Shown here in pieces: positions 3,194-38,855 of a stretch of 38,855 nt of DNA (position 1 is the stretch's first letter; each line of letters opens with the position of its first letter). Made by a program: the position numbers and the translations under genes. The notes beneath the pieces are model-generated. The model had not been told where the DNA came from and did no database searches. It saw only the letters and a list, made by a program, of their open reading frames with translations. The DNA is from Archaeoglobi archaeon (GTDB lineage: Archaea > Halobacteriota > Archaeoglobi > Archaeoglobales > Archaeoglobaceae), in contig JAPDIW010000079.1 of NCBI GenBank assembly GCA_029259415.1, forward strand, positions 1-38,855, read 5' to 3'.

Positions 3194-3319
3194 GAGCTAA
3201 TGAAGGATTGATGGGAATATAAACCTATGTCCCTGACAAAAAATTTCTCGAATTCATCAAAAATGCTATCAGTCGCAAAAATTCATAAACAGATTGTCTT
3301 GGCGAACCAAAGGATAAGC

Positions 3320-4131: not shown

Positions 4132-4141
4132 CAAAAAGAAA

Positions 4142-4888: not shown

Positions 4889-4990
4889 GGTAAAGATTAA
4901 TTTTTACAGATTATATTAAGGTTTTGGAGTGCAAAGTAAACTAAAGCCAGCATTTCATACAAGGTTTTCAGACACCTCCAATGAGTCAAA

Positions 4991-4998
4991 TTTTAATA
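4991..4998 (+). promoter_or_regulatory. TATA box of the taw1-tiaS operon
   Basis: TTTTAATA is centred about 26 bases upstream of the taw1 ATG at 5021. That is the archaeal TATA-to-start distance, so the transcript is predicted to start at or next to the ATG (leaderless). Confidence 0.5.
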
Positions 4999-5020
4999 AC
5001 AACTCGTTCTACTGTATACG

Positions 5021-7741: not shown

Positions 7742-7785
7742 CTTTTTAAGATAACTTTTTAATAATCAGGTGTTAAGGAGTGCCG

Positions 7786-9300: not shown

Positions 9301-9316
9301 TCACGAAGCAAAAAAC

Positions 9317-9323
9317 AAATATA
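9317..9323 (+). promoter_or_regulatory. Box A (TATA) of the tRNA gene
   Basis: AAATATA is centred 26 bases before the first base of the mature tRNA, the usual position of an archaeal tRNA promoter. Confidence 0.55.
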
Positions 9324-9345
9324 CTCAAAGCCGAATTAATTCAGG

Positions 9346-9420
9346 GGGCCCGTAGCTTAGCCAGGTCAGAGCGCCCGGCTCATAACCGGGCGGTCGAGGG
9401 TTCGAATCCCTCCGGGCCCA
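9346..9420 (+). tRNA. tRNA with CAU anticodon, probably tRNA-Ile2 (AUA)
   Basis: A 75-base cloverleaf is present. The acceptor stem GGGCCCG (9346-9352) pairs with CGGGCCC (9413-9419) and the discriminator is A9420. The D stem is GCTT/GAGC, the anticodon stem CCCGG/CCGGG, and the loop CTCATAA has anticodon CAT at 9381-9383. The T arm is GAGGG-TTCGAAT-CCCTC. There is no intron and CCA is not encoded. The acceptor stem resembles archaeal tRNA-Ile. Archaeal initiator Met tRNAs usually begin AGCGGG, and elongator Met tRNAs often begin GCCGGGG. I therefore read it as tRNA-Ile2, the TiaS substrate, with elongator Met as the alternative. Confidence 0.85.
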
Positions 9421-9570
9421 TTCCTCGGAGTTACTATTTTCTGAACTTGGCAAGCTGCAGAAATTTGGCTATTTAGTAAATCTTTCTTCAATTTATTTTG
9501 CAAACACAAAAATCAAAAGATTTATTAGCTGTTGTGAAAAAGAATCCAAAAAGTATTACGAGGTGAGAAC

Positions 9571-10458
9571 TTGCACATTCCGGATGGCTACCTTGATTTG
9601 AGCGTGGCTGGTTTGTTTTACATCCTTTCGATAGCCGTGCTCGGATATTCAATATACAGGCTTAGAGAACAGAAGCTGACCTCCCTGTTTGGTATAGTTG
9701 CTGCAGCAATTTTTGCCGCACAGATGCTCAACTGGCCAATTCCTGGTGGAACTTCAGCACACTTCGTTGGCGGAGCGTTGGCAGGAATTCTGCTCGGTCC
9801 ATATGCAGGAACACTTGCTATGGCGGTGGTATTAACCATACAGTGTTTAGTTTTCGCGGACGGAGGCATAACCGCTCTTGGAGCCAACATCTGGAACATG
9901 GCAATAGTAGACGTCTTTGTTGGCTACTACATCTACAAGGCTCTGGAGAGATTCAACAGATCCATAGCGGCTTTTGTTGCTGGTTGGCTTGGTATAACGC
10001 TCGCAGCCATATTCGCAGGAATTGAAATCGGCATCTCATCATCGTTTGGCTACGGACTTGGAGTTACCGTGCCGGTTATGGGAGTGTGGCACGCGATCCT
10101 CGGCATAGTTGAAGGAGTGATCACTGCAGGCGTCGTCAGCTACATAGCTGCAGCAAGGCCGGATGTGTTCGAGCAGAAAGCAGCTCCAGGAAAGCTAGCT
10201 CTCGGAGTGATAGCGGCAATGATAGTAGTTTCGCCGCTCTTCGCCTATGCTGCTGAACTCGTTGGTTATGCTGAGCCGCTTGAAAACGCTGCTGAGAAAA
10301 TTGGACTTGAAGAGAACCCGATTTACGAGGGTCTGTTGCCAGACTACACCCTCCCTGGCCTTGACCCATACGTCGGAACTCTGATTGCGGGGATTGTTGG
10401 AACAGTAATCGTTTTAGGCCTTGGAGTAATTCTATCCAGATATGCACGAACTACTTGA
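9571..10458 (+). CDS. cbiM: ECF-type nickel/cobalt transporter substrate-binding membrane protein (CbiM/NikM fused to a PDGLE/CbiN-like tail)
   Basis: This is a 295-residue membrane protein. The mature N-terminus MHIPDGYLD is the metal-capturing sequence of CbiM/NikM S components (His2 and the amino terminus bind Ni or Co), so the TTG start at 9571 is fixed by homology. A GAGGTGAG site precedes it. GGTSAHFVGG and QCLVFADGGITALGANIWNMA are family signatures. The C-terminal about 90 residues (from KLALGVIAAMIV, then a GLEENPIYEGLLPDY loop and a last helix) resemble the PDGLE/NikN accessory part fused onto NikM. The metal cannot be decided, although Ni is plausible for a hydrogenase- or CODH-bearing archaeon. 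It overlaps cbiQ by 17 bases. Confidence 0.88.
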   Translation: MHIPDGYLDLSVAGLFYILSIAVLGYSIYRLREQKLTSLFGIVAAAIFAAQMLNWPIPGGTSAHFVGGALAGILLGPYAGTLAMAVVLTIQCLVFADGGITALGANIWNMAIVDVFVGYYIYKALERFNRSIAAFVAGWLGITLAAIFAGIEIGISSSFGYGLGVTVPVMGVWHAILGIVEGVITAGVVSYIAAARPDVFEQKAAPGKLALGVIAAMIVVSPLFAYAAELVGYAEPLENAAEKIGLEENPIYEGLLPDYTLPGLDPYVGTLIAGIVGTVIVLGLGVILSRYARTT

Positions 10459-22741: not shown

Positions 22742-22861
22742 AAACTCTCAGCAGTTCTTGGAGGTTTGGGAACGCTTTACGGATCTTTGATTGGTGCGAT
22801 AGTGATTTACCTCGCAAAGAACTGGTGGATTGGCGACGTCATCCGCGCTCTCTCCCCATAA
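22742..22861 (+). pseudogene. Remnant of livM (branched-chain amino-acid ABC transporter permease), 3' end only
   Basis: The plus strand from 22742 reads KLSAVLGGLGTLYGSLIGA and IVIYLAKNWW, then IGDVIRALSP and a stop at 22859-22861. The GGLGTLYG-x-LIGA loop is the conserved C-terminal signature of LivM permeases. Only about 40 codons remain. It abuts the livF remnant head to head, so a deletion or inversion has joined two pieces of one former transporter operon. The rest of 22862-22973 has no gene; AAATCAAATAA near 22943-22953 may be the nitroreductase promoter. Confidence 0.7.
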
Positions 22862-22973
22862 ACGACGAGATCGTGTTGATGCATTGCAGTTGGGATACTC
22901 ATGCCCGAATGTCTTTATCAAGAAATTAAGGAAAGTGGGTAAAATCAAATAAGCAGTGAGGAAAAATGAGGCT

Positions 22974-23492
22974 ATGGAATGCTTGGATTTGCTGTTCAGA
23001 AGAGTATCAATCAGGAAGTTTAAGCCTGATGACATTGACGATGATACTTTAATGAAGATTTTGGAGGCCGGAAATGCCGCACCCTCAGCCGGAAATCTGC
23101 AGGCAAGAGATTTTGTTGTTGTAAGGAATGAGCAGACGAAGAAAAAGCTCGCTATGGCCGCTTTGAAGCAGATGTTCATCGCCGAGGCACCTGTTGTGGT
23201 TGTTGTGTGTGCCAACTATCCGAGAAGCATGAGGGTTTACGGTGAGAGAGGAAGACTCTACGCTGAGCAGGACGCTACTGCAGCGATTGAGAACATCCTT
23301 CTCGCCGTGACGGCGCTAAATCTGGGAGCGGTCTGGGTGGGAGCATTTGATGAGGAGCAGGTTTCGGAGATACTTGAGCTGCCCGAACACGTCAGGCCGA
23401 TGGCAATAATACCAATTGGCCATCCAGCGGAAAATCCAGCTCCGAGAAACAGGTATCCGGTTAGCATGCTGACGCATTTCGAGAAATGGTGA
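22974..23492 (+). CDS. Nitroreductase family protein
   Basis: This is an FMN-dependent oxidoreductase of about 172 residues. The N-terminus has the FMN phosphate-binding RRVSIRKFK, then [19 protein letters not shown] (landmark APSAGNLQ). The later part has [29 protein letters not shown] (landmark LGAVWVGAF) and IIPIGHPAE. It uses NAD(P)H to reduce flavin-accessible substrates, which cannot be predicted. GTG 22956 is an in-frame alternative, but ATG 22974 has GAGG just upstream and starts at the family-like [10 protein letters not shown]. It is convergent with the BREX operon. Confidence 0.88.
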
Positions 23493-23519: not shown

Positions 23520-23605
23520 GCCTAACGTTCCGGGGATATGCGAAGTTTACCCGTAAGGGCAAATTTGGGCGTAGCATAGCGAAGCCACATATCCTCCTGT
23601 TAGGC
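23520..23605 (-). repeat. attC-like folded recombination site downstream of brxL
   Basis: The minus strand has an R'' box GCCTAAC (RYYYAAC), a 4-base spacer AGGA, L'' GGATATG and a 47-base inner region. L' CATATCC, a 7-base spacer CCGGAAC, and the R' box GTTAGGC (GTTRRRY) follow. R''/R' and L''/L' pair perfectly over 7 bases each, as in integron attC sites with their unpaired central spacer. The inner region contains its own hairpin TTTGCCC-TTAC-GGGTAAA. It lies between the convergent brxL and nitroreductase genes, so a terminator-like stem is the main alternative. Confidence 0.55.
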
Positions 23606-23616
23606 GACGAACTCAT
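23599..23616 (+). repeat. Inverted repeat, brxL end of the BREX island
   Basis: GTTAGGCGACGAACTCAT. Its reverse complement recurs with one mismatch at 33233-33250, just upstream of brxP. The repeat begins five bases outside the brxL stop. Confidence 0.8.
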
Positions 23617-23620
23617 ATTT

Positions 23621-25042
23621 TTATGTGATTTTAATTTCAGGTAAAGTGTCATTGAATTCGTTGTCGATTAGACTTATTTGCCTTTTAATGATTTTTCTCA
23701 TCTCTATTGCTGGTTTTAAACAAAATGTTTCAAATTCTTTTTTACTAATGTCATCTCTCTCATATACATGAGGGAAAAGTAGCTTTAGATAACCTGTGCA
23801 TATTTTTACTATAGCTCTAGTATCTCTCGTATCTGCGTTTTTAGGTATATCTAACAAAGAATCAACTACCTTAGCAAAATCTGGTACTGTCCTTAGTTTG
23901 TGTAATATTTCGGAGAAATATTCAACATTCAACGCATATCCTCTCAACTTTAAATCTTCTCGCATTCTAGGTAATTTCCATCCTTCAATGAAACCATGAA
24001 ATCTGTCTAACAAGGCAGAATCTTGAAAGAACTTTGGTAAATTAACGAAATATTTGCTATGTAGTGGTTTTCTATCCTTTGTTAAAGGAATATTTCCTAA
24101 TAAAATAAGACCTGCGTCAGAATTATCTCTATAATCAGCTATCGCAAATGTTCCAGACTCTAAATAATTTTTTAACGCCCCTTGTAATTCGGCAGGATCT
24201 GAAAACTTTATAGACGAAATTTCATCTAGAGCAACAAAATCATAACGTTTTATTATTCCTGGAGTAGCCCGAGCAATATCATAAAAAAGTTTGGCCCTTG
24301 AAACAACACCACCACTTATAACCCAGCCATATTTACTTAGATTATTGAAGGTATAAGACTTACCTGTTCCTTTAGGTGCGAGTTCTATCATGTTTAAGTT
24401 CGGTTCAACAAAAACGAGAAGCCGAGCTAGAAATAATAACTTTTGAGAAAGCGATTCGAAACCATCAGGGTTGTATTCCATAGAACGTATCAGAACATCT
24501 ATCCATTCTTCTAAAGAAAATTCTTTTCGTTTCTCCCTGAAATACTCTACATCCACTTCATAAGGTTTAAATGGTTTATAGTCAACTATTTCTATTGCTC
24601 CTTTTTGTTTTCCTTCAGGCGGAATATAAACTAATTTAACGACACCCCAAACTTCCCCTCCTTTTAATTCTGGGAACTTCTTAGCAATATATTGAGGAAT
24701 CCTACCTTCATTGAGTTTTATACCAATATCTGGTATAGAAAATCTCAATATCCCTGATTTTATATCTGGTTCTACTACAATTCTTGCAAGTAATGTGACC
24801 TCCTTTAAATCGTTTAAAAGAGTTCCTTTTATTTTGCTCCTTTTATGGGCAATATGAGTATTCAAAAAAAGTTTTAAAGCATCTACATCCAAATTTCCAT
24901 ACTCATCTGTAAACTTCCTTAGTATCCAATCTTTAACAAAAGAAGGTAGGTTATATCCAGAGAATACTCTATACTCCTTTGGGCTTTTGAATACAGACTC
25001 TTCTGGGAATACTCTTTTTATTTTTTCATCTAACTCATTCAT
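23621..25042 (-). CDS. brxL: BREX AAA+ protein BrxL (short, without Lon protease domain)
   Basis: This is a 473-residue AAA+ protein of the BrxL/Lon-like family. Walker A is PKGTGKS at 223-229, Walker B FVALDE at 269-274, and a sensor-like LLGNIPLTKDRKPLHSKYF (landmark LLGNIPL) follows. The N-terminal 200 residues hold an OB-like region (GGEVWGVVKLVYIP). Type 1 BrxL proteins are about 680 residues with a C-terminal Lon-protease-like domain. Here the protein ends about 200 residues after Walker B with no Lon Ser-Lys region, so it is an ATPase only. In BREX, BrxL is a DNA-translocating ring needed for defence. It is the last gene of the operon, with an ATGA overlap with pglZ. Confidence 0.88.
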   Translation of the reverse strand: MNELDEKIKRVFPEESVFKSPKEYRVFSGYNLPSFVKDWILRKFTDEYGNLDVDALKLFLNTHIAHKRSKIKGTLLNDLKEVTLLARIVVEPDIKSGILRFSIPDIGIKLNEGRIPQYIAKKFPELKGGEVWGVVKLVYIPPEGKQKGAIEIVDYKPFKPYEVDVEYFREKRKEFSLEEWIDVLIRSMEYNPDGFESLSQKLLFLARLLVFVEPNLNMIELAPKGTGKSYTFNNLSKYGWVISGGVVSRAKLFYDIARATPGIIKRYDFVALDEISSIKFSDPAELQGALKNYLESGTFAIADYRDNSDAGLILLGNIPLTKDRKPLHSKYFVNLPKFFQDSALLDRFHGFIEGWKLPRMREDLKLRGYALNVEYFSEILHKLRTVPDFAKVVDSLLDIPKNADTRDTRAIVKICTGYLKLLFPHVYERDDISKKEFETFCLKPAIEMRKIIKRQISLIDNEFNDTLPEIKIT

Positions 25043-27420
25043 AGGAGATCCCTCTCTTTAAATCCTCCTCTGATAGTTACCTTTATTCGATACTTCATAT
25101 CACCTATCTTCAATATTATCGTGTACGTCCCAACTTTTAATCCTTTTAGATCTATCTTGTAGACATCATTCTCTTTCTCGTATGATACATTCAATGAACG
25201 CTCATTGAGAAAAGCCTCAGGAATATACAAAGGTTGTGGGTATATTTTGAATTGAACTACCGGATTGGTTATCCAAATTTCAGGATTAATAATTTCAATT
25301 TTATATTTGATTTTATCTTTTTCAGTTTCTATTATAATATAAGGTACTAAAACTTCTTCGGGAGTTGCACCTCCATGAACTTCTCTATAAGGAGTATTAT
25401 TTAACGAAACATGTTTCAATGCTACAAGAGTCTTTCTGCCCCGACAATTTCCTTCATCAACGTTCCACATAATAAAATACTCGTCATCCTTGTAATCTAC
25501 CCCGTCAATCCACATACATCTTCCCTCATGTTCGGCATTTTGCAAATTGAGTCTTTTAAAGTTACCAAAATCTTTCAAACACAAAAAACTGAATCCATGA
25601 TCTGAAACGATGCCAATTTTGTTATGTGGCATTTCAATAATTTTCTTTACGATTTTTTCTATAATCTCAATTTCTTTGATTAGGTCATCTGGATATTTAT
25701 ATGGTTTTTGATTGTGGATGTATTTATCTAAATCTTCAATTTTTTCAAATTCGTATCTATTGCATTCTGTAGTACTTGGCAAATTGGCTCGTGTAAGCAT
25801 TTTCTTTTTTACAATTCTTCTGTTCTCTTTGCCATATCTACTGAGTAGATGAACTATTAAAGGAAACCATTCTGCTCCTAACCCATCTACCCACACATAT
25901 TTAATATTCTCTTCTATTTTTGCTTTAGGCAGTGAATAATACCAATCTGAAAAAGTAGACTTGTTTTTATTCTTATTATTAATTAGTTCTTCTATTTTTG
26001 GCGATGTAGTATGTCTTATTTTTGAAAAGTTATACTCCTTAAAATATTCGAGTATCCAATTATCCACTTCATTATCAGGCTTTATTAGGTCCCAATCTAA
26101 ATAATAGGCTAATTCTGGATAAATCTTTTTTAGATCAAGAATGATTTCTTGAACATCAATATTCCTTAATTCAGAAATAATATACTCCCTCTCAGTAAAT
26201 GTTATGTTAGTCAGATATTCGAGCTTTTTCTTTAGTGAATAACTTTTTATATTACCAAGTGCATTGGCAAGTTCTCTTTCTACAAATTGAGCTGGGAAGT
26301 TGAGATTCTTGTGTATGAGGTTTAAAAATTCTTTCCTCTCGGAAAAAACATCTTTAGTTAGCGTTTCGGGAGGTAGGTGAAATATTTCTAACCATAACTT
26401 TTCTATCAAATCCTCTTCTTTTAATTCCCTCAATCTTTTGAAACATTTATATAAATAGGAAGATTTAAACTTATCTAAAGCTAAGAAAAGGTTTTTAATT
26501 AACCATCTTTCATAATACTCGTTCGTTCTCAAATAGAGAACGAGAAGGTCTTTGGGTGTTAATCTTTCTATACTTCTAAAATTAAAATGTCTCAAAAATA
26601 TGTTTTCTATGGTTAATCCTTTTTCATTATATCTGCTGCCTACCTCCTTTATGAGTTCGTTCCAAAACTCTACTTCATCATCTTTAAACTTTACCGGAAC
26701 CTTGATTTCAAAAATCTCTTCAAGAAATTCTTTTTGATTTGAAATCTCCCTTAACTCAAATGCTTGATCTGGGAGAAAATTTTTATAAAAACATGACAAA
26801 GATTTAGACAGAGATAAAATACCTTCCACATTTTCCCTTTTCCAAACACTTAGCCATTCTTCAGTAGTAGATATTACTGCAAGGTTTTCTAAGGAAATAT
26901 TCTTATAATCTAAATCAAAATTTATTTGATATATGGTTATTTTTCGAGAAGAGGTTTCTAACTTCCAAACTGGTGCCCATTCTTCCTTTCTGTAAAAGTT
27001 AGTCCAGAATTCTTGTTCAAATCTTTCCCACAAACCAACTAAGGGTATATAAATTCTTATATTGTTTTGCTTTTCAATTTCAGTTAGGCTTTTTAAGGTT
27101 ATATAAAAATCTTCTTTGCCTTGAAATCTCAGAAATTCCGAGAGTGGTGCCACAACAGCATTGTTAGGTATTTCCTTTACCCAATTTATTATTTCATCTG
27201 TTGTCAGCCATCGATTTTTACCAGATAAAATTTCCGTTATTTCTCTACTTTCAACATTACAATTTTTAATCAGAAATCTAATAATTTCTCGTAATTCTTC
27301 GAAAGAATTGACGAAGATAAATCTTACTGGAAACCTTCTGTCAGAGATCCTTTCAGAATATTTATCCTGCCTTATTCTATTGTATAACTCTCCAAGAGAA
27401 TGGAATTTTTCTACTCCCAT
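25039..27420 (-). CDS. pglZ: BREX phosphatase-fold protein PglZ
   Basis: This 793-residue protein has a C-terminal PglZ domain of the alkaline-phosphatase superfamily. Metal and active-site landmarks are YVWVDGLGAEW (Asp512), LPSTTE (547-552, possible Thr nucleophile), VSDHGFS (606-611), HEGR (631-634) and VHGGATPEEVLVPY (His682). The N-terminal 450 residues are helical and not recognisable in detail. PglZ is the signature protein of all BREX systems; some members hydrolyse nucleotides or phosphodiesters, but its role in defence is unresolved. It is joined to brxC by a one-base stop/start overlap and to brxL by four bases. Confidence 0.93.
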   Translation of the reverse strand: MGVEKFHSLGELYNRIRQDKYSERISDRRFPVRFIFVNSFEELREIIRFLIKNCNVESREITEILSGKNRWLTTDEIINWVKEIPNNAVVAPLSEFLRFQGKEDFYITLKSLTEIEKQNNIRIYIPLVGLWERFEQEFWTNFYRKEEWAPVWKLETSSRKITIYQINFDLDYKNISLENLAVISTTEEWLSVWKRENVEGILSLSKSLSCFYKNFLPDQAFELREISNQKEFLEEIFEIKVPVKFKDDEVEFWNELIKEVGSRYNEKGLTIENIFLRHFNFRSIERLTPKDLLVLYLRTNEYYERWLIKNLFLALDKFKSSYLYKCFKRLRELKEEDLIEKLWLEIFHLPPETLTKDVFSERKEFLNLIHKNLNFPAQFVERELANALGNIKSYSLKKKLEYLTNITFTEREYIISELRNIDVQEIILDLKKIYPELAYYLDWDLIKPDNEVDNWILEYFKEYNFSKIRHTTSPKIEELINNKNKNKSTFSDWYYSLPKAKIEENIKYVWVDGLGAEWFPLIVHLLSRYGKENRRIVKKKMLTRANLPSTTECNRYEFEKIEDLDKYIHNQKPYKYPDDLIKEIEIIEKIVKKIIEMPHNKIGIVSDHGFSFLCLKDFGNFKRLNLQNAEHEGRCMWIDGVDYKDDEYFIMWNVDEGNCRGRKTLVALKHVSLNNTPYREVHGGATPEEVLVPYIIIETEKDKIKYKIEIINPEIWITNPVVQFKIYPQPLYIPEAFLNERSLNVSYEKENDVYKIDLKGLKVGTYTIILKIGDMKYRIKVTIRGGFKERDLL

Positions 27421-30400
27421 TAAACTCCCTCCAGATACTTTTCAATTATTTCTACGATATCTGGGTGTTTATCTTTTAATTCATCTATAAGTTTAATTAG
27501 GATTTCTTTGACATTCTTTTCAGAACTTTCCCAAATCCGTTTTTTAATATTTTCAATCCTTCCCGCAGGTATGAAAGAATGGGATTCAGTATATTGAGAA
27601 ACAGTTATTTTATTATCCTGTGTAATTATCTCACTACTCTTAGTCTGTTTCAATTCTTCGATTTGCTTTTCAAGTTGTGCCTGACTTTTCTTAAGTTTCT
27701 CTGTGTACCAATCTTTAACTTTCTCTCTAACTCTATCTTCTGTCCAAGAAGCAACTTCTTCTTGCATATTTTTCCTAATATAATTTATAACCTCTTCTAT
27801 ATCCTCAGATGAAATTTCAACTCCTTCTATACTTTTCAACCACTTTTTAAACAATTCCTTCAGATTTTCTTGGTCTATTAAAATGTCAAGATCATACCTT
27901 ACACCCTCTATAGCATTTAAGCAATCCCTTATCTTTTCATACGTAAGCTCCCTATCAATTGATTGAACGAGTTCAAAAATAGCATCTATAGCTTTCGTAG
28001 TATTTTCATTAATATTCTCTGCGAATTTGAATGCCCATATTGGAAAGCCTTGTTTTTTAACCCATTCTCTTACCTTCCATCTTGCATCATTCAAACTTCT
28101 AACATCCTCAAGTTTAAATAAATCTTTCAAAATCTCAATAAGTTTTTCTTCATCTTCTGTTCCAAAACGAACTTCCAACTTCTCTCTATGCGTTCCTTTT
28201 TCCCAGTAATCAAACAAAGTTAATATTTTATCTCTCATTACCTCTTTTTGAATTGGTATTCCTGTTCCAGCTTCAAAAAGTTTACCAATATATTCCCTCA
28301 TCAAAAAACCAACTGCTGCCATATTAACCATATTGGGGTACAATCCATAAGGTGGTTTGGTGAGGAATCTTAGAGCATCTCCTAGATTAAATACTCCGCT
28401 ATCTTTTTCTTTTTCAAAGACTTTTCTTATTTCTAAATACATCTTTTTCAGGGGATGGTTTTCAAAAATGTCATCTTTTATTTTTAGATTTATATCTACA
28501 ATGTATTCCCCATTGTTGTCTTTAATAATCTCTCGTAGATATCTTTCTGGACCTTTAGATGTCTTTTCTTCTATATCCTTTCTGCTATTGGCGAATAAAA
28601 ATATTTCAGCAGAGGTTTTAGATCGTTTGTATGTCCAAATATTCCTGTTTTTTTGTGTCTCCTCTATATTCTCTAAACCATAAGAGAATATCTTTCTAGA
28701 CAATTCCTCGTTTATCTTTCTGCTAAACTGACTCATTAATTCTTTACCACTTTCATTCTGCAAGAACCACTCAATATATCCCGATTTTACTTGATTAATC
28801 CAGTCATCAATAATCTTTCTTGCATATTCCTCGTTTATATTTCGCTCTTCTGGATAATTATGTTTGTCTGCGACTATTGCCCTTGCTTTATATTCTATGA
28901 ATCTATTAAATGTTTTGTCATCTAGGGTTACTTCAGATACGACAAAAATTATATTTCTGAGGTCATCATCATTAGAGATCTCCTTTAATATGTTTTTTAT
29001 TTGTTGTAATTCTTGTTCACTTTTTCCTAAAAACAAACATAGGTGAATTGTATAATCCTTTTTAAAGGCTTTTTCTGTTTTTCTCCTTATTAGATGTCCA
29101 TTTAAACTAGTGTCCATTATTATGAATTCAACATCTCTATTTACGGAAGCACTAATGGTATCTTGTAGTTCTTTTTCTTGCTTACTATTGAGTATTCTGT
29201 CAATTGTATTATATTCACTTTTTATCTTATTCTTTTCGGTTTCAACTTCTCTTGAGGGTAGACCTGAGCTTGTAATTAAGTATAAATTATCTGGTGTTTT
29301 ATTGATTATTTGCTTGTCATCAATGAATGATAGAATGCTGGTTAAATCTTTCTGATCAATAGCCCCAGCAAAAAGATTTATTATATTCTTCTCAGAAGGA
29401 ACAACAAGAGAAGATTCTCCAACCTCCACAAATCTGTAAAGAAGGTTTAGAAGAAGTGCACCTTTAAACACAGACAAATATTTATCACCTTTCTCCTCCA
29501 AAGCGTCCTTGTGAAGTTTAAATTTTTCCAGCACGGCATGAACTTTTTCGCTTTCCATCCTTTCAAATTCTTCATAGAAAAAGTCCCAAAGATAATCTGC
29601 TGTCAAAAATATCTTTCCATTCTCTCCTGGATTTTCTTTTATGAATTTCTTGAAACCACTTCTTTCATCATACAAAAAATTGAAAATGCTCCTTTCTGTA
29701 GAACCTATATTTCTTGCTATAAAAGTTGCTAAATACGCAGTATAAGGATGGATTGGGAAAAGATTCTTTAGGGATTTTTGAACTTGCGTTCCTTCACTCC
29801 CGGTAATTTCCTCTATTAAAGATTTCACTGAATCTATATACTTATCTTTAATCTCTGTAAATTTGTCCATATCTTTTTTCTTAATAGCGGCGTTGATAAT
29901 GTGGTAAGTGGTTATAGGCTCCATTGAATAATCCAATACTTTAAATCTTCCAAGAACTTTTTCTACATCATCTCTTGAAATATTTGTCTGGTAGGGTTTT
30001 CTATGAGCGACAACAAACAAATAAACACCTTTGTTGGTAGATAGTTCTGCTATATTCTGCAATTCTGTCAATAATAGACCAGATTTAGGCAATTCCAAAA
30101 TCCCAGTAAATTCATCCCAATAAATTACTAAATAATCTGCAATTCCTTTATTTTTTAGTTCATTTCTTACATCTACCAACCAGTTTGCAATATTTTCAGT
30201 AGAGAAGTGAATACCTTTTTGTGAAAGTATGTCTTCTATTTTGGTTAATATATTGATGTTCCCTTGTTGAAGCTTAGAAATTATATCTTCTTTAGTTCCA
30301 TAAACCTCTAATTCTGTTCCCCTGAAAATATTTTCCCAGTTTATTTCATCACTTTTTAATTTTGCAATCATTTTATCAAAATCAGTTTTTGTAATGAGTT

Positions 30401-30833
30401 CAATTCCTTCTTTCTTTAAGGCATTTTTTACCGCTTTTTCAAGTACCAATGCAAAGGTTCTATTATCAATAATTGAGGACGTTCCCTTTAAAACAACTGG
30501 AAAAACCCTCCTATTTTTACGGAAATTTTTTATTTTAAATTTTATTTGTTCTTCCAGATTTTCAATGAAGTCATTTATCTCATTAAGATCATCAAAAAGA
30601 AGGTGTTTTACTACAGCGGTTGCATGGCTTTTTCCGGTGCCATAAGCTCCCTGCAGCCATATTGGTTTTCTTTCTTCTGGTTTGCTACTTTCAAGCGAGT
30701 TTATCGTTTCTGATAGCACTTTATAAAATTTTTCGTTAGGAATAAATTGCTTCCAGTATGTTCCAATTTCGTTTTCTAAATCATAAACAGGTTGGAAGTA
30801 ATCATTTAACCCTACAATTTCCTCATACCTCAT
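27420..30833 (-). CDS. brxC: BREX large P-loop ATPase BrxC/PglY
   Basis: This is a 1137-residue ATPase, the usual size for the BrxC/PglY family. Walker A is GAYGTGKS at 62-69 and Walker B is YLVIYWDEF at 234-242. The N-terminal YFQPVYDLENE is typical. The C-terminal third is coiled-coil-like (LKKSQAQLEKQIEELKQTK), followed by a helical tail. BrxC is a core BREX component thought to act with PglZ. It overlaps brxP by 4 bases and pglZ by 1, so all four genes form one translationally coupled unit. The codons are A/T-rich, with many AAA, ATA and TTT. Confidence 0.92.
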   Translation of the reverse strand: MRYEEIVGLNDYFQPVYDLENEIGTYWKQFIPNEKFYKVLSETINSLESSKPEERKPIWLQGAYGTGKSHATAVVKHLLFDDLNEINDFIENLEEQIKFKIKNFRKNRRVFPVVLKGTSSIIDNRTFALVLEKAVKNALKKEGIELITKTDFDKMIAKLKSDEINWENIFRGTELEVYGTKEDIISKLQQGNINILTKIEDILSQKGIHFSTENIANWLVDVRNELKNKGIADYLVIYWDEFTGILELPKSGLLLTELQNIAELSTNKGVYLFVVAHRKPYQTNISRDDVEKVLGRFKVLDYSMEPITTYHIINAAIKKKDMDKFTEIKDKYIDSVKSLIEEITGSEGTQVQKSLKNLFPIHPYTAYLATFIARNIGSTERSIFNFLYDERSGFKKFIKENPGENGKIFLTADYLWDFFYEEFERMESEKVHAVLEKFKLHKDALEEKGDKYLSVFKGALLLNLLYRFVEVGESSLVVPSEKNIINLFAGAIDQKDLTSILSFIDDKQIINKTPDNLYLITSSGLPSREVETEKNKIKSEYNTIDRILNSKQEKELQDTISASVNRDVEFIIMDTSLNGHLIRRKTEKAFKKDYTIHLCLFLGKSEQELQQIKNILKEISNDDDLRNIIFVVSEVTLDDKTFNRFIEYKARAIVADKHNYPEERNINEEYARKIIDDWINQVKSGYIEWFLQNESGKELMSQFSRKINEELSRKIFSYGLENIEETQKNRNIWTYKRSKTSAEIFLFANSRKDIEEKTSKGPERYLREIIKDNNGEYIVDINLKIKDDIFENHPLKKMYLEIRKVFEKEKDSGVFNLGDALRFLTKPPYGLYPNMVNMAAVGFLMREYIGKLFEAGTGIPIQKEVMRDKILTLFDYWEKGTHREKLEVRFGTEDEEKLIEILKDLFKLEDVRSLNDARWKVREWVKKQGFPIWAFKFAENINENTTKAIDAIFELVQSIDRELTYEKIRDCLNAIEGVRYDLDILIDQENLKELFKKWLKSIEGVEISSEDIEEVINYIRKNMQEEVASWTEDRVREKVKDWYTEKLKKSQAQLEKQIEELKQTKSSEIITQDNKITVSQYTESHSFIPAGRIENIKKRIWESSEKNVKEILIKLIDELKDKHPDIVEIIEKYLEGV

Positions 30834-33202
30834 TTTAACCTCGCCTCCGCAATTTTTACTACATCCAAAGATGAAAGGTCGTCCCTCAAATAAATATTAT
30901 CCAAGTCTGCAACTAAATCTACCCTTAGGATTTGCTCCTTATCTTCCTGAAGACCTCTTAAAATTCTTTCCAATTTATCTTTTGAAATCCCAAATAATTT
31001 ATATGGTCCCCCTTTGAATTTTTTGCTGTACAATTCCGATATGGTGAAGTCTTTTCTTCCCATATGTTCTGCTGCCTTATAAAGACTGTATGCAACTGCC
31101 AATGGATGAATATCGTCCGTGCCAATTTTCTTAATAGATTTTACAACCCTTCCTTTTTTATCTAAAAGACCGATTTGAAGTTTCTCCCCTAATGGAGAGT
31201 TATCAAACATATTAACCATAGCATCAATTGGATTACTTAGTGTGCCTTTACTTAGATTAGGATGCGATAAAGCAATTTTTTCTTTTAATTCTTTTTTGGT
31301 ACATATAATCCCCCAATCTACTTGATCACAGTACCACTCGATTACCCGCGAATTATAATATAGATTGTTCCAAATTATGCACCATACAAAAAGATTGTTT
31401 TTAAGATATATTTTTCTTAGATATTCACCTAACGCGGTAGTCTTTTTAGTTTTAGGCTCTACCAACTCCGCATCAATAAGCCAGTGAAGTACCGCTGGTA
31501 TTTGTTTTGGACCCAAGTTATTTTTCTCTAACCACCGATCACCAAAATTTAGAAATGAACTTAGCCACTCTTCTCTTAATCCAAAAGTGGAATATTTATC
31601 AATACCTCCAGTCTTTTTCTTCATAGAGCCACCTCCAACATTTTCGTGTATCGATTTGGATACTAAACATCCCTTTTTAACAAAATATATACAGTTTCCG
31701 CAATGAGTACATAACTCGCTGTTTATTTGTACATAGGGTCTAACCCTTAAGGCTTCTGTCGGACATTCAGCTTCGCATGCTCCACAGTGGATACAAAAAG
31801 TGCTTTTATATAATACCCTCTTTAGCTTATTAAGGAAATCAATGTCACACCCAATATTGTAAAACTCTACAATTTCCTTTTTACTATTTTTTGAAATTAC
31901 AAATGAATATAGCCTATTTCCTGTTTTAAATTCTCCAAAAATCTTATTGGGTGTTTTTTGCCTGTATAACACACTTCCTACAACTTTTACCCATTCTAAA
32001 AAATTTTCTTTGGGATATATCATTACTGCTTTAAGATGATTCCCATCAATCGAGAAATTTATAGTAGACTTATTTTTTAACCCTCTCCCACCAGCTCTTT
32101 TTTTCCATTGTCCACTTGCAATATATCTATTTATGTCTTTTTCCTCATCCAAACCCATCGCTTTAGAGTATTCTTTTAACAATTGAAAATACTCATTTAC
32201 TGAGTCATCTTCAATTTTGCTAAGGATATATTCCGACCACTCCGACGAAAAAGGACAAACCGAGCAGCCTACTCGAGTTAAACCTAGTCGGTACCCAAAA
32301 TTCATTCTAAGACGCCTTAAAAAAACATATAGTACTACTTCTGAAAGATTCCAGTATAGGATGGGTCTTACATTTATGATAGGAAAATGCTTAACTCCCT
32401 TCGCAATTCTCTGATAATTCGACCGTTTGTCGCTTTCTTCGGTTCTTACTCCTTCAAATACAACAATTTTAGACATTGTTCCGTTCTTTAAAATGTTTCT
32501 AATGAGATTAGTAAAAGGTGCAGTTTTAATCACTGTGCAGCACCATCTATGAACCCTACTAGGCGGACCGAACTCTCTCCAAAACTCTATTGCTGGCTTA
32601 GGAGGCTTAGCAATATAAAATTTTAATCCAGGATATCGTTTCTCATATTCTTCTTTAGTTTTTTCTACATTCTCATATGTATACGAAATTTCCATTGTAG
32701 TGTCTGAAAAGATGACTACTAAATCATCAGGAGGGATAACTCTTGTTACAAGGTCTAATACGACCTGTGAATCTTTTCCTCCACTGTAAGACACAGCAAA
32801 TAAGTAACCCTTCTTTTTGTAAACTTTATATGTATGCTCTATAAAATCCAAAGCTTCATTCTCCAACACAAATAAAGCTTCTTTATTTTTTTCAATTACC
32901 TTATTAATATCTATTGGTTCCAACTTGAGGTTTTGCCCTTTTTCTGTGAGTACTATTTTAGGGGGTTCAAATATGTTGCCTCCTTTAGCCTCAGCTACAA
33001 GCTCCCCTTTATAGTAGTATCTTCTCCCAATAGCCCAGAGTAATGGCTCCTGAGCTTTAGGATAGTCCCAAAACTTATCAAAACCCAAGAGATCTAATTC
33101 TTCGAAAAAGACAGGACGTGGCGGAGCTATAATTTTAGAACTATTCTCATTATCTACTAACAGAATACTATTTGTGTCTCTATCCCATGTTACTTTATAC
33201 AT
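30830..33202 (-). CDS. brxP: BREX type 4 PAPS-reductase-domain protein BrxP
   Basis: This 790-residue protein is built of several parts. The N-terminal segment is unknown (1-130). A PP-loop PAPS-reductase/DndC-like domain follows, with SGGKDS at 140-145, HRWCC at 219-222 and GCSVC at 312-316, whose cysteines could hold an Fe-S cluster as in DndC. A two-cluster ferredoxin segment has C470, C473, C476, C480 and C498, C501, C504, C512. The C-terminal DUF4007-like region starts near 533 (GGIDKYSTFGLREEW). BrxP defines type 4 BREX, which has no PglX methyltransferase. DndC-family proteins insert sulfur into DNA, so a sulfur-based self mark is a plausible role. ATG 33202 follows AAGGTGAAG. Confidence 0.92.
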   Translation of the reverse strand: MYKVTWDRDTNSILLVDNENSSKIIAPPRPVFFEELDLLGFDKFWDYPKAQEPLLWAIGRRYYYKGELVAEAKGGNIFEPPKIVLTEKGQNLKLEPIDINKVIEKNKEALFVLENEALDFIEHTYKVYKKKGYLFAVSYSGGKDSQVVLDLVTRVIPPDDLVVIFSDTTMEISYTYENVEKTKEEYEKRYPGLKFYIAKPPKPAIEFWREFGPPSRVHRWCCTVIKTAPFTNLIRNILKNGTMSKIVVFEGVRTEESDKRSNYQRIAKGVKHFPIINVRPILYWNLSEVVLYVFLRRLRMNFGYRLGLTRVGCSVCPFSSEWSEYILSKIEDDSVNEYFQLLKEYSKAMGLDEEKDINRYIASGQWKKRAGGRGLKNKSTINFSIDGNHLKAVMIYPKENFLEWVKVVGSVLYRQKTPNKIFGEFKTGNRLYSFVISKNSKKEIVEFYNIGCDIDFLNKLKRVLYKSTFCIHCGACEAECPTEALRVRPYVQINSELCTHCGNCIYFVKKGCLVSKSIHENVGGGSMKKKTGGIDKYSTFGLREEWLSSFLNFGDRWLEKNNLGPKQIPAVLHWLIDAELVEPKTKKTTALGEYLRKIYLKNNLFVWCIIWNNLYYNSRVIEWYCDQVDWGIICTKKELKEKIALSHPNLSKGTLSNPIDAMVNMFDNSPLGEKLQIGLLDKKGRVVKSIKKIGTDDIHPLAVAYSLYKAAEHMGRKDFTISELYSKKFKGGPYKLFGISKDKLERILRGLQEDKEQILRVDLVADLDNIYLRDDLSSLDVVKIAEARLK

Positions 33203-33232
33203 CTTCTCTTCACCTTTATTTTGTTTTGAGTT

Positions 33233-33250
33233 ATGAGTTTGTCGCCTAAC
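33233..33250 (-). repeat. Inverted repeat, brxP end of the BREX island
   Basis: The plus strand reads ATGAGTTTGTCGCCTAAC, the reverse complement (17/18) of 23599-23616. It lies 31 bases upstream of the brxP ATG, between it and the palindromes at 33257-33311. Confidence 0.8.
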
Positions 33251-33256
33251 TCGTTC

Positions 33257-33311
33257 ATATACGCATTGCGTATATCATTCCAAATTAGAGTCATATCTGC
33301 ATTGCATATAT
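33257..33311. promoter_or_regulatory. Two tandem 19-base palindromes and probable BREX promoter
   Basis: ATATACGCATTGCGTATAT (33257-33275, 9-base arms perfect around one base) and ATATCTGCATTGCATATAT (33293-33311, 8 of 9 arm bases pair) have centres 36 bases apart. On the minus strand the first contains GTATATGA, a TATA-like box about 60 bases from the brxP ATG and the best promoter candidate for the operon. The sites may bind an autoregulator, or be the arm sites of a recombinase, since the GTTAGGC core begins six bases away. This would place the BREX promoter outside the cassette, like the Pc promoter of integrons. The rest of 33312-33364 shows nothing. Confidence 0.55.
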
Positions 33312-33364
33312 ATACTCATTCTGGATGCCTACCACCTCCCATCAAATCCAGCGGACTCTTAATC

Positions 33365-34351
33365 TTACTCAGATTTTTTTGTGCTCACGTGAGTATAAAT
33401 CTCTGTCGTTTTCGAATGCTTATGTCCTAGCAGCTCCTGAATGTACCTCAGATCAACTCCACTTTCGAGTAAATGGGTTGCGAATGAATGCCTTAAGGAA
33501 TGAACTGTAGCATCCTTTTTAATGTCAGCTCTATCCCGTGCTCGCTCAAAGATCGCCTGAACTGTTCTGGTTGAAATGTGCCTGTCCTTTTTCTGCCCCG
33601 GAAACAGCCACTTTTCTGGCTTATATTTCTGTAAGTATTCTTTAAACGTTTCCAGTGCCACTTCAGAAAGGATTGTGTAGCGATCCTTCCTGCCCTTTCC
33701 ACCCCTTATTCTGATCAATTTTCTTTTCACGTCAACATCCTCAACCGTGAGCTTTACAACCTCTCCAACTCTCAATCCGGCAGAATACATGAGCATCAGG
33801 ATCAGCCTGTGCTTGATGTTTTTGACAGAGGAAAGAATCTTTGAAACCTCTTCCTGACTCAAAACAACGGGCAGCTTTTTATCCTTCTTCGGTCTCCTGA
33901 TATTGTAAGCAAATCTCTGCTTCAAAATTTCGCCATATTAAAACTTCAATGCGTTGATTGCTATGTTCAATGTTGAAGCTGAACAGTTCTTCTTTTCAGC
34001 CAAGTAATACAGATAGCCTCTCACATCATCATTGGACACCTGATACGGAGTTTTATTACAGAATTTCAAAAATTCTTCATTGTAATGCAGGTAAAGCTTT
34101 ACCGTTCTCCTACTGTACTTTCTTGCTATCAGTTCTTTCTTCAGTTCATAAAACCAGACAGATTCGTCGATCTCAACTCTCTCACCACCGAATGCAGATA
34201 AAAAATTCTTCAGTTCGGAGTACGGAATGCTCCAGTACTTTCCATCGGGGTGCCACTTATAACCCTTAACAGTTTTAATTCTCGCAATGTAATCAGGATT
34301 GTAAGGAAATCTGACTACGACAGCATCCCTTCCACTTTCAATCCTTATCAT
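33365..34351 (-). pseudogene. Tyrosine recombinase (XerC/integrase type) with HARP-like N-terminus, interrupted by one in-frame TAA
   Basis: One frame runs from ATG 34351 to 33365, with a single TAA at 33938-33940 and no frameshift. Residues about 10-50 (VRFPYNPDYIARIKTVKGYKWH and PDGKYWSIPYSE) resemble a HARP-like segment. A SAM-like DNA-binding region follows (YSRRTVKLYLHYNEEFLKF). After the stop, the catalytic domain holds AGLRVGE (Arg), GGKGRKDR (Lys), HSLRH (His, Arg), LGHKH (His) and EIYTHV (Tyr). Without the stop the protein would have 328 residues. Restarting at TTG 33925 would give only the catalytic half. The IntI-specific insert before HSLRH is absent, so it is Xer-like. It sits one base after the TPR gene. 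Confidence 0.85.
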
Positions 34352-34352
34352 C

Positions 34353-35555
34353 TTACCCCTCCAACCTCTCCCTTAGCTCAACAGGCACGTATGCAACCTT
34401 GCAGTATCTGTCGAGCTTCATGACTCCAACGAAAAGCAATCCATGACTTCTGAGCATTCCAACAGCAGATCTCTGCTTTTTCTTTGACCACCACCAGCTT
34501 ACAGAACAATCAAAATTCCTCCTCAGCTCCGAATACCTGACAACTCCTCCCCTATCCATTACGAACGCCAAAGCTTGCCTTGCATCCTCGGGCATCGATT
34601 CAGCGATTTCATCGCATCTCTCCTTCAAAAGCTCTGCAATAAGCTCAACCTTCTCCCTCTTCCTCCTCGCTTTCACACCAAGATTTTTTGCTATCCCATT
34701 AACCCATTCAGCAGGAAGCTTGTTCAGCAAAGTCTTCAGACTTGACCTCTTTGTTATCTTCATGAGCTCAGCGTAACCAATCCATGTTTTTTCCAGATTC
34801 TCCATGAGACGTCTGACGAAGTCGTCCATGTCTCTTGGAATTCCAAAGACGTCAAGACTTTCTCTGCCAGATACGTAATCAAGCAAGAGAGCGAGAGGAT
34901 CTGGGATATATTCAATTTTATCCAGAATTTCTTTAGCTTTTTCAACCACTTCGTCAAAATCTGTACTGACAATTGACTTCAGCCTCTTCAACCTCTCAAC
35001 CTTCGGTTTATCAACAGCAACTTCAATTGCCTCATCCAGAATCTGCATCGCCTGATTGATGTCCTTGGCGTCGATAAACTTTGCAAGCAATCCAGCAATT
35101 GCGAAATCCTCGTTCCATATCCAGTAAGTTCGAAGAAATCTATCTGTCCTTTCATCATCGATTTTCCTCGCTCTCTCAATGTAATCGCAGAAATAATCGT
35201 CTCCAAGCCAGTACATGATGTTGGCTTTGCTTATGAGCAGATCGAAGTTCTCTTCAATTTCCAAACCCCTATCAGCCCACTTCAAGGCTTCTTTAAACCT
35301 GAAGGTGAACATTCTGTTCATGCAGCCAATAACGTATGCCATTACATCATCTTCACCTTCAGCTTCAGCAAGAACCTTTTCGATGATCTCGTCGGATTCA
35401 AAATACCTGCCAAGCTTTGTTAAAGCTTCAGCCTTGATTAAAGCTGCATCGACGTCAAATACCCTTTTCAACACCTTATTTGCAAGCTTTATCGCAGTAT
35501 GAAGGTCTTCATTGAGTAAAGCCTCCATTGCTCTCTCAATATCTTTCTTTTTCAT
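34353..35555 (-). CDS. TPR-like helical protein with C-terminal winged-helix-like region
   Basis: The protein has about 400 residues from ATG 35555, which follows a strong GGAGGGGG site; a longer open frame to 35648 lacks support. Residues 1-230 are a run of helix pairs of TPR type (AIKLANKVLKRVFDVDAALI, then KAEALTKLGRYFESDEIIEK as one repeat). The C-terminal about 90 residues (ARQALAFVMDRGGVVRYSEL, RRNFDCSVSWWWSKKKQRSA, VGMLRSHGLLFVG) look like a winged helix. It overlaps the upstream TPR gene by 20 bases and precedes the recombinase by one base, so all are co-transcribed. The function is unknown; scaffold or regulator is a guess. Confidence 0.7.
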   Translation of the reverse strand: MKKKDIERAMEALLNEDLHTAIKLANKVLKRVFDVDAALIKAEALTKLGRYFESDEIIEKVLAEAEGEDDVMAYVIGCMNRMFTFRFKEALKWADRGLEIEENFDLLISKANIMYWLGDDYFCDYIERARKIDDERTDRFLRTYWIWNEDFAIAGLLAKFIDAKDINQAMQILDEAIEVAVDKPKVERLKRLKSIVSTDFDEVVEKAKEILDKIEYIPDPLALLLDYVSGRESLDVFGIPRDMDDFVRRLMENLEKTWIGYAELMKITKRSSLKTLLNKLPAEWVNGIAKNLGVKARRKREKVELIAELLKERCDEIAESMPEDARQALAFVMDRGGVVRYSELRRNFDCSVSWWWSKKKQRSAVGMLRSHGLLFVGVMKLDRYCKVAYVPVELRERLEG

Positions 35556-36749
35556 TTTCCCCCTCCACAACATCCCTGTATTCAACATTGAGGCCATACA
35601 TTCTGTTAATTTTGAAAAATGCGATGAACCTGTTTGCAGATTCGTCATATTTCAGCTTCTTCATGAGCTTTCCGTATTTGTTTATTATCTGCCTTTCATG
35701 CCTTTTATCGAACAGAAAACCTCCCTGAGTTACATTGAACTCAAGAGGGATTATTCTGGTGAAAATAAGAACTCCGGGTTTTGCTGTTTTGCTCAGGTTT
35801 ATGTTTACAACCCTTATCTTTTCCCCATTCAGCAAATCCTCAAGTTCAACCTCACACTTCAGCTTTGAAGCGGAGATTATTCTGAAGAGAGACGTGTAGG
35901 ATGAGAGCATACCCCTCAAAACTTCAGCTTCGACATCATTTTCTGCTTTTCCGTATATTTCTATTGGGTTCTTCCCGTCTTTTCTGTATTCGTAAAGGAC
36001 GAATTCCCAGAAGATGTCCGCTTCATCCTCGTCCCTCAGCAGCACAGCCTTTCCCCTTGCAATTCCGAGCATCTTCGCTGAATTTATTGCTTCTTCGCTT
36101 ATATCCTCCAGAACTCTGAGGCATACATCCGCAATGGCTTTCCTGTAAGCCTTATATTTCTCAATTCTTTTCGGATCGGCAATTTTATTCATAACTTCCC
36201 TTACTTTCTCCTCGGCATTATCGTAAAGCAAGCCAAATCTTTCGTATATAACATCCATCTCATCCTCATCCGCAAATTCAATTGCCCTCGTGTAGAGTTC
36301 CTCGGCTTTTTCGTCTCCAAGCTCGTAGAGCACATCACCATAGCCTATATACCCCAAAAGTAATTCGGATGCTCTCTTATCAACTCTTCAAATTTTTCCT
36401 TGCTTTTCTCGGTCTCTCCAAGGTAGAAGTAGGTTTCCGCTATGCCCCTCTTGAATTCTGGATCATCACTGATTTCTGTCAGCTCTTTGAGGAATTCAAG
36501 TCTCTTGAGAAGATAACTTCTATCTTCCATTCCCGCATTCTCCAATGCCATGTCGAGATCATAAACCCAGTTTGAGATGAAGTAATCGAATGGAAGCTCG
36601 TCAAGCTCTTCAATGCTTGCTGCCATCGATTTCACGATTTTCCACGCTTCAAGCCACACATCGCACGCTTTTTTGATATTTTCATCTTGAAGCTCATATC
36701 CTTCCTCTATCAGGCCGTTAGCCCTCTTTATGTCAATTCTTCTGGGCAT
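35536..36749 (-). pseudogene. TPR-containing protein split by loss of one G
   Basis: Two frames join into one protein of about 404 residues. The first part (36749 to 36345) ends ...EKFEELIREHPNYFWGI-stop. The second continues GYIGYGDVLYELGDEKAEEL. Adding one G to the run GGGG at the junction (about 36350-36355) gives NYFWGYIGYGD, a standard TPR helix pair, so one G has been lost. The C-terminal half (from about 35900) has a beta-rich region ending FFKINRMYGLNVEYRDVVEG. The slip is in a homopolymer, so it may be a sequencing error and the gene may be intact. The family is unknown. It lies between the zinc-finger pRiA4b-type gene and the second TPR gene. Confidence 0.75.
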
Positions 36750-37990: not shown

Positions 37991-38018
37991 CTGATTCGGG
38001 TTACGATTGCGACGTGTC

Positions 38019-38363
38019 CTAATAACACCTCCTAACGACATTGAAGTAAAACATGAACATCCTGCAAAACCTGTTCCAGCATTCTAAAGCTCTTCTCCAC
38101 CTTGCAAACCTCTTCTCTCTCCTCCTGAAGTTAACCGTAATGGAACAGAAGAAAATCCTTGCTCTCTGCTTGAAAGCTAAAGACAGATTCAACCAAACTC
38201 CTCTCTCCGAAGCTTTCATGTCTAAATTTAATACCTAAACGATTTAGAGCGTCTCTGTATCATGGTCCTCTATCCAGGACAACCTCCTCTACTTCACACA
38301 TCCTTAAAACTTCCTTGAGGAAAGAGTAAGCTGTTAAAGCATTTTTGCAATAAACTTTCAGAT
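38019..38363 (-). pseudogene. C-terminal remnant of an IS6-like DDE transposase
   Basis: The minus strand reads NLKVYCKNALTAYSFLKEVL and EEVVLDRGP-stop-YRDALNRLGIKFRHESFGERSLVESVFS, and then in another frame FKQRARIFFCSITVNFRRRE ending FNVVRRCY. The DRGPWYRDA and HESFGERSLVES-type blocks are typical of IS6-family DDE enzymes. The Trp codon is now TGA (P-stop-Y) and one base is missing before FKQR, so the gene is dead. Its 5' part is cut off at about 38364, where the IS481-like element begins. Confidence 0.75.
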
Positions 38364-38855
38364 TGTAGTATCCCGAAATAACTTTACACTCCAACAAGAT
38401 TGCCATGTGAGGAAGCTAACAAACAAGGACATAGCAAGAATAGTGAAACAGTGGCTTAAAGGGAAACCGATAACAAAGATAGCGAAATTCTTCCAGGTAA
38501 CAAGGCAAAGAGTCCACCAGATAATCAAAAAGTTCAGGGAGACAGGAGAAATTCCCTTCCTTCGAAAACCGGGGAGGAAACCCAAAGAGATAGACGAAGA
38601 TACAGAAAAAATCATCCTACAAGCCCACAAACAGTTCAATCTTGGACCAGTTCACTTGGAAAAGAAGATAGAGGAAGTTTATGGGATCCATATCCCTCAC
38701 AACACCATCTACAAAGTTCTGCTAAACTATGGTTTGGTGGAGGAGAACATGAAGAAGAAAAAGCAGAGGAAGTGGGTTAGATACGAGAGAGCTCATTCAA
38801 TGTCTCTATGGCAGGGAGACTGGAAGCTGATCAATCTTAATGGAGAGGAGAAATG
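38364..38855 (+). mobile_element. IS481-like insertion sequence, left part, truncated by the window end
   Basis: The element probably begins at TGTAGTATCCCG (38364), since the IS6-like relic stops making sense there and IS481 elements commonly begin with TGT. The right end lies outside the window, so the inverted repeat and target duplication cannot be checked. It interrupts an older dead transposase, giving a nested insertion. Confidence 0.55.
38407..38855 (+). CDS. IS481-like transposase, N-terminal part (runs off the window)
   Basis: The open frame starts at GTG 38407 and is uninterrupted to the window edge (149 codons). Residues 1-50 are a helix-turn-helix (LTNKDIARIVKQWLKGKPIT, KIAKFFQVTRQRVHQIIKKF). 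The second HTH region (LGPVHLEKKIEEVYGIHIPH) and NTIYKVLLNYGLVEE follow. The integrase core begins at SLWQGDWKLI with the first catalytic Asp. This domain order fits the IS481 family. The copy looks intact so far and may be active. The preceding ATG at 38405 is in another frame and meets TGA at once. Confidence 0.8.
   Translation, partial: MRKLTNKDIARIVKQWLKGKPITKIAKFFQVTRQRVHQIIKKFRETGEIPFLRKPGRKPKEIDEDTEKIILQAHKQFNLGPVHLEKKIEEVYGIHIPHNTIYKVLLNYGLVEENMKKKKQRKWVRYERAHSMSLWQGDWKLINLNGEEK

What the first reader, a model, noticed from the sequence alone, without database searches (positions are those of the whole stretch)
23520..33311. A complete type 4 BREX operon packaged like an integron cassette in an archaeon
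Seen: four overlapping BREX genes bracketed by an 18-base inverted repeat (GTTAGGCGACGAACTCAT at 23599; reverse complement with one mismatch at 33233). There is an attC-like site after the last gene, a GTTAGGC core right before the first gene, and a tyrosine recombinase gene next to that core. Known: integron cassettes have the order core site, gene, attC, and GTTRRRY/RYYYAAC are the attC/attI core boxes. Inference: a 9.7-kb defence operon moved as one cassette. Cassettes are normally single-gene and much smaller, so this would be a new way of moving BREX.
Basis: partly seen in the sequence, partly recalled or inferred. Interest (0 to 1): 0.9.

Follow-up and report, generated by a model that had tools for sequence, protein, structure and literature searches.

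The report
BREX operon as archaeal integron cassette
A complete four-gene virus-defence operon sits in an archaeal genome as one very large gene cassette of an integron-like gene-capture system whose integrase lacks the domain thought essential for integrons, which points to a second, widespread and apparently undescribed kind of integron.

Summary
A complete type 4 BREX operon (brxP-brxC-pglZ-brxL) lies between an attC-like site (23520-23605) and a GTTAGGC core at 33250, next to a tyrosine recombinase gene. The 18-bp inverted repeat alone is at chance level. What makes the case is comparison. (1) The attC-like site belongs to a covarying structured family (71 sites aligned), found in 23/55 family genomes and 101/393 phylum genomes, often in co-oriented arrays (57 of 58 close pairs). 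(2) The same recombinase heads such arrays elsewhere. It is followed by a conserved attI-like site with a different cassette in each of 13 loci. (3) The two ends of each cassette match each other far better than those of other cassettes, and the BREX ends do so. The operon is therefore one 9.72-kb cassette in first position; the median of 43 cassettes is 1.06 kb. The system works like an integron but is not the canonical one. Its integrase lacks the IntI additional domain, groups apart from IntI1, and extends to Bacteroidota. Its attC fold differs, and a small canonical attC model finds none of these sites. In this genome the integrase carries one in-frame stop, so the cassette is probably immobile in cis. 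No recombination was tested.

The parts
23526..33249 (-). whole BREX cassette, 9724 bp, from inferred crossover (G^TTAGGC at 33250) to the G of R' at 23526
   Evidence: crossover positions by comparison with 43 cassettes and 13 attI loci
23520..23605 (-). attC of the BREX cassette (cassette strand minus; the predicted folded 'bottom' strand is plus); R' = GTTAGGC at 23526-23520, R'' = GCCTAAC at 23605-23599
   Evidence: best member of covariance model R1 in the family (92.8 bits; the model was built in part from this site); fold z -2.18 on plus strand, -0.52 on minus
23599..23616 (.). 3' cassette end: R'' plus 11 nt; 17 of 18 nt complementary to the cassette's own 5' end at 33233-33250
33233..33250 (-). 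5' cassette end GTTAGGCGACAAACTCAT; core GTTAGGC at 33250-33244
30830..33202 (-). brxP (PAPS-reductase/4Fe-4S/DUF4007 protein of type 4 BREX)
   Evidence: PADLOC BrxP E 1.9e-302; Pfam
27420..30833 (-). brxC
   Evidence: PADLOC BrxC 2117 bits
25039..27420 (-). pglZ, BREX-4 phosphatase
   Evidence: NCBIfam NF033445 673.6 bits, cut-off 140
23621..25042 (-). brxL
   Evidence: NCBIfam TIGR02688 497.6 bits, cut-off 329
33251..33321 (-). attI-like site: two imperfect palindromes of the type ATATACGCAATGCGTATATGA, the second ending in ACGA just before the crossover GTT
   Evidence: conserved behind the integrase in 13 loci, each followed by a different sequence
33365..34351 (-). tyrosine recombinase (integron-like clade, no IntI additional domain), one gene split by an in-frame TAA at 33938-33940
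   Evidence: intact relative L133:2516-3571
22956..23492 (+). left flank: nitroreductase-like gene, directly followed by pheA in the relative G004 (empty platform site)

Best explanation
The type 4 BREX operon is one four-gene, 9.72-kb gene cassette in first position of an archaeal integron-like platform: integrase, attI, BREX, attC. A tyrosine recombinase of a clade related to XerA and IntI, but without the IntI additional domain, would recombine a folded single strand of the cassette's attC with the double-stranded attI next to its own gene, cutting at G^TT. It would thus insert circular cassettes next to itself and excise them again. Shown by sequence: genes, sites, array order, conserved attI-like edge with changing cassettes, own-end matching, attC covariation with a strand bias. 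Inferred: that this recombinase acts on these sites, that the attC is used as a single strand, that a BREX circle existed, and that transcription starts in the attI region. In this genome the integrase has a nonsense codon, so the cassette is probably now fixed unless served in trans.
For: Covariance model of the site: 92 hits in 23/55 family genomes and hits in 101/393 phylum genomes; covariation score 0.417 against 0.172 shuffled and at most 0.064 slid (the alignment was fitted to the model); G-T 175 against A-C 52 pairs, so the plus strand folds. Close neighbours: 57 co-oriented, 1 opposed. The integrase or its remnants sit at the head of arrays; 41-45% relatives outside the clade have no convincing site. 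13 attI-like edges, each with different DNA beyond. Own cassette ends match: 8.58 against 5.93 for others, 0 of 100000 permutations; letters 5-9 of the core 4.28 of 5 against 2.56. Longest ORF on the cassette strand in 39 of 43 cassettes. BREX genes overlap, leaving no room for an attC between them. PglZ found in none of the other family or phylum genomes searched; cassette GC 32.6% against 45.6% to its left.
Against: No recombination shown; no circle or read evidence. Integrase broken here, and decayed in most Archaeoglobaceae copies. Many attC clusters lack a neighbouring integrase. The BREX cassette is 2.5 times larger than the next largest of 43 measured. The inverted repeat alone is at chance level. 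Some attC calls are weak.
Confidence: 0.85

Rival explanations
1. The attC-like elements are ordinary dispersed structured repeats (MITE-like); the BREX operon merely lies between one of them and a decayed integrase.
For: The elements are abundant and many clusters have no integrase nearby. The repeat pair is at chance level.
Against: Almost all close pairs are co-oriented, genes run in one direction between them, cassette ends match their own partner better than others, and the integrase-side edge is shared while the cassette changes.
Confidence: 0.07
2. The operon is a transposon or island bounded by 18-bp terminal inverted repeats.
For: Inverted repeat at both ends, low GC.
Against: No transposase inside; the repeat is the extended stem of an attC; the same integrase-side edge occurs with unrelated genes in other genomes.
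Confidence: 0.03
3. A canonical integron with a diverged IntI; nothing new beyond a large cassette.
For: G^TTRRRY cores, attI and attC order, bottom-strand fold, SPLD-like C-terminus shared with IntI1. The integrase scores about as well against IntI4 (143.6 bits) as against XerA (146.5 bits). [quoted passage not shown]
Against: The additional domain is missing: TIGR02249 positions 181-230 and IntI4 residues 182-239 are skipped. No match in 55 genomes reaches the TIGR02249 cut-off. A small canonical attC model finds none of these sites but finds held-out canonical ones.
Confidence: 0.1
4. The sites are recombined, but by another recombinase; the adjacent integrase is a bystander.
For: Integrase decayed in most family genomes while attC sites persist.
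Against: The attI-like site and attC arrays follow this clade and not its nearest relatives outside it, and integron-like intervals follow it in Bacteroidota too.
Confidence: 0.1

Closest known systems
Archaeal integrons with IntI (Ghaly et al. 2022, PMC9668308)
   Same: attI next to the integrase, co-oriented cassettes, attC sites folding on one strand, archaeal hosts, defence genes among cassettes
   Different: Those IntIs carry the IntI additional domain and form one clade; six IntIs and 539 attCs in 75 MAGs were reported. The main text names no Archaeoglobi; the supplement was not readable here.
Class 1 integron (IntI1, attI1, attC of resistance cassettes)
   Same: G^TTRRRY cores, inverted cores in attC, cassette logic
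   Different: IntI1 has the additional domain and lies outside the clade; attC here has a three-way-junction consensus with conserved inner sequence; integrase and cassettes point the same way.
Archaeal XerA
   Same: Closest solved chains are XerC-like 4a8e and XerA 5hxy; no additional domain
   Different: XerA resolves chromosome dimers (established knowledge) and is not tied to attC arrays; this clade has an extra N-terminal region of about 70 residues.
Type 4 BREX (BrxP, BrxC, PglZ, BrxL)
   Same: All four genes, near full length
   Different: Lies in a cassette; the only plasmid-borne PglZ relatives found are 38.5% identical, in Methanosphaera
XerD-like recombinase upstream of tet(X3)
   Same: In the same clade as this integrase, 52% identical to L133 over the aligned part
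   Different: Known as a plasmid resistance context; link to cassettes not tested

Membership tests
Integron | IntI-type integrase with the additional domain | tested here: not met
   Matches to TIGR02249 skip positions 181-230 and none reaches the cut-off; alignment with IntI4 2a3v has 58 residues in the chain where the query has 16
Integron | Primary recombination site (attI) beside the integrase gene with G^TT crossover | tested here: met
   Conserved site behind the integrase, different sequence beyond GTT in 13 loci; by sequence only
Integron | Array of co-oriented cassettes separated by attC sites | tested here: met
   in the window itself there is a single cassette
Integron | attC with inverted R''/R' cores RYYYAAC/GTTRRRY and a bottom-strand fold | tested here: met
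   inner fold differs from the canonical hairpin
Integron | attC recognised by canonical attC models | tested here: not met
   Small model R2 from 7 class 1 cassettes finds none here, but finds held-out canonical sites; IntegronFinder itself not available
Integron | attI x attC recombination by the integrase | not testable with these tools
   Needs an assay
Integron | Promoter Pc driving cassette expression | not tested
   Only 48 nt lie between the crossover core and the brxP start codon, with a ribosome-binding-like AGGTGA
Type 4 BREX | brxP, brxC, pglZ, brxL together | tested here: met
Type 4 BREX | Defence activity | not testable with these tools
   No assay
Transposon with terminal inverted repeats | Transposase within the element | tested here: not met
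   Only the four BREX genes lie between the ends

The most novel reading that the evidence does not exclude
A second lineage of integrons, present in archaea of the phylum searched (Archaeoglobaceae, Alkanophagales and others) and in Bacteroidota, works with a Xer-like integrase without the IntI additional domain and with its own attC family, and it moves whole multi-gene defence operons such as BREX as single cassettes.
Probability: 0.65. Interest if true: 0.92.

Novelty: new variant of a known kind. Interest (0 to 1): 0.82.

Why it matters
The IntI additional domain is used as the defining and essential mark of integron integrases, and search tools rely on it and on canonical attC models. 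A cassette system without it, common in archaea and present in Bacteroidota, would show that integron-type recombination arose in, or can be done by, a simpler enzyme, and would help explain why integrons seemed absent from complete archaeal genomes (PMC9024848). A 9.7-kb operon as one cassette would also widen what cassettes can carry and give a direct way by which BREX, and other defence genes, reach archaea.

Tried and rejected
Rfam gathering search gives only a tRNA in the window. Viral contigs: no relative of the integrase C-terminal part. An inner attC within BREX: the only weak call (24847-24938, E 0.056) lies inside brxL, on the wrong strand for this array, and is rejected. Terminal-repeat transposon and dispersed-repeat readings rejected as in the rivals. 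The inverted repeat as evidence on its own was dropped after the shuffle test. Structure prediction was not used; sequence alignment to solved IntI4 and XerA answers the domain question.

Full report
What is there. On the minus strand, four overlapping genes form a complete type 4 BREX operon: BrxP, BrxC, PglZ, BrxL. Taken alone they are at chance level: two such pairs in the window, 0-2 in each of 12 shuffles.

The attC-like site. The 86 nt at 23520-23605 are a member of a family found by DNA similarity in 10 of 55 family genomes. A covariance model from 12 copies finds 92 sites in 23 of 55 family genomes and sites in 101 of 393 phylum genomes, where scoring was limited to 11 candidates a genome. 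On 71 aligned sites, 90.7% of pair cells are paired, and the covariation score is 0.417 against 0.172 in shuffles and at most 0.064 in slid controls; the alignment was fitted to the model, which leans towards the structure. The consensus is an outer core stem, a second stem and two inner hairpins. Wobble pairs favour the strand opposite to the cassette genes, 175 G-T against 52 A-C, as in canonical attC, where the bottom strand is used (established knowledge). The window site itself folds better on that strand.

Arrays. Of adjacent sites closer than 4 kb in the loci read, 57 pairs are co-oriented and 1 is not. In 39 of 43 intervals the longest ORF is on the cassette strand, starting a median 66 nt after the crossover. 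Interval sizes run from 309 to 9724, median 1064; BREX is the largest, the next is 3818. Other intervals hold DNA methylases, a type I-like methylase, a SIR2-TPR protein and a Cas10 of type III CRISPR; the borders of the last are weak.

The integrase and attI. The recombinase 33365-34351 is one reading frame with an in-frame TAA at 33938-33940, where relatives have a tyrosine codon. An intact relative is L133, 351 aa, in a Candidatus Alkanophagales MAG. Intact or near-intact copies also occur in G388, G080, G081, G138, G162 and G208. Behind the gene lies a site of two or more imperfect palindromes, the last ending in ..ATATGAACGA or ..ATATACCGAA just before GTT. In 13 loci this edge is followed by a different sequence each time: BREX in the window, a nucleotidyltransferase-like gene in G019, others elsewhere. 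Integrases or their remnants sit at the head of attC arrays in many genomes. Relatives of 41-45% identity outside the clade have no convincing attC sites behind them.

The end-matching test. In a circular cassette the start of the cassette completes the attC, so its 5' end should match its own 3' end and not that of its neighbour. Over 43 cassettes, outside the first four core letters, own ends score 8.58 against 5.93 for other pairs, with 0 of 100000 permutations reaching the sum. Letters 5-9 of the core agree in 4.28 of 5 positions against 2.56. Own beats the upstream neighbour in 12 of 16 cases. The BREX cassette is among the best (12.5, rank first). The 18-bp repeat is thus explained as the extended stem of its attC.

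Is it an integron? It works like one by anatomy. It fails one defining test: the IntI additional domain is absent. TIGR02249 is matched at 4-180 and 231-304 only, and against solved IntI4 the query has 16 residues where IntI4 has 58. In a tree the clade of 16 proteins, archaeal and Bacteroidota with the tet(X3)-linked XerD, has support 99/99 and leaves out IntI1, XerC, XerD and other archaeal relatives; some rows have long branches. A small canonical attC model finds held-out class 1 sites but none here. Ghaly et al. 2022 describe archaeal integrons with the additional domain and do not name Archaeoglobi in the main text (PMC9668308). IntegronFinder 2.0 found none in the archaeal genomes of its RefSeq set (PMC9024848). 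Smyshlyaev et al. 2021 note that the insertion is not fully conserved in their integron-like subgroup (PMC8138268), so the protein type may have been seen without its arrays.

Where the platform sits. In G004 the nitroreductase gene is followed directly by pheA. In this genome the pheA side is on contig C50, with a second attC-like site close by (68 nt from the end of the match) and the heptamer AAATGGT at both outer junctions. So the whole platform was inserted there or the region rearranged; this is separate from the cassette edges. BREX-4 PglZ is absent from all other family and phylum genomes searched, and the cassette has 32.6% GC against 45.6% to its left, in line with capture from outside.

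Bacteroidota. A Bacteroidetes MAG (L135) and Chryseobacterium plasmids (L197, L198) carry the related integrase. In L135 and L197 it is followed by co-directional small genes whose intervals have matching ends, e.g. GTTATAGCCAATTTT/AAAACTGGCTATAAC in L135. Their sites are not found by the archaeal model.

Limits. All evidence is sequence. MAG assembly and the TAA were not checked against reads. The literature search covers open PMC papers only, and supplements were not readable.

Noticed in passing
L199:2528-3193 (NZ_CP104735.1): The XerD-like recombinase upstream of tet(X3) in Acinetobacter plasmids belongs to the same integrase clade (52% identical to L133); tet(X) may once have been a first cassette of a Bacteroidota platform of this kind.
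   Followed up: partly
L197:8968-13214; L135:1052-6352: Chryseobacterium plasmid and Bacteroidetes MAG with related integrase followed by co-directional small genes whose interval ends match each other, i.e. an integron-like array in Bacteroidota.
   Followed up: partly
L209, L211, L212, L215, L216, L217, L221: Clusters of three to six attC-like sites without a neighbouring integrase in other archaea of the phylum (CALIN-like).
   Followed up: partly
L033:9853-11832; L022:6974-8977; L113:7343-11819; L174:1673-4552: Other cassettes carry a Cas10, DNA methylases and a SIR2-TPR protein, so defence genes recur in these cassettes.
   Followed up: partly
L129:8286-8356 (G000:C50:13285-13355): Second attC-like site at the far edge of the platform next to pheA, with AAATGGT at both outer junctions and a truncated gene tail in front of it.
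   Followed up: yes
34353-36749: Three ORFs between the integrase and the PRiA4-ORF3-like gene that are absent at the same place in G002 and G039; the first has a weak PglX match (E 6e-5).
   Followed up: no
22743-22745: Deletion joint: G004 has about 3.7 kb more here, in a transporter gene region left of the nitroreductase gene.
   Followed up: no
38010-38855: Contig end lies in repeated, insertion-sequence-like DNA with many copies in this genome and relatives, which probably broke the assembly.
   Followed up: no
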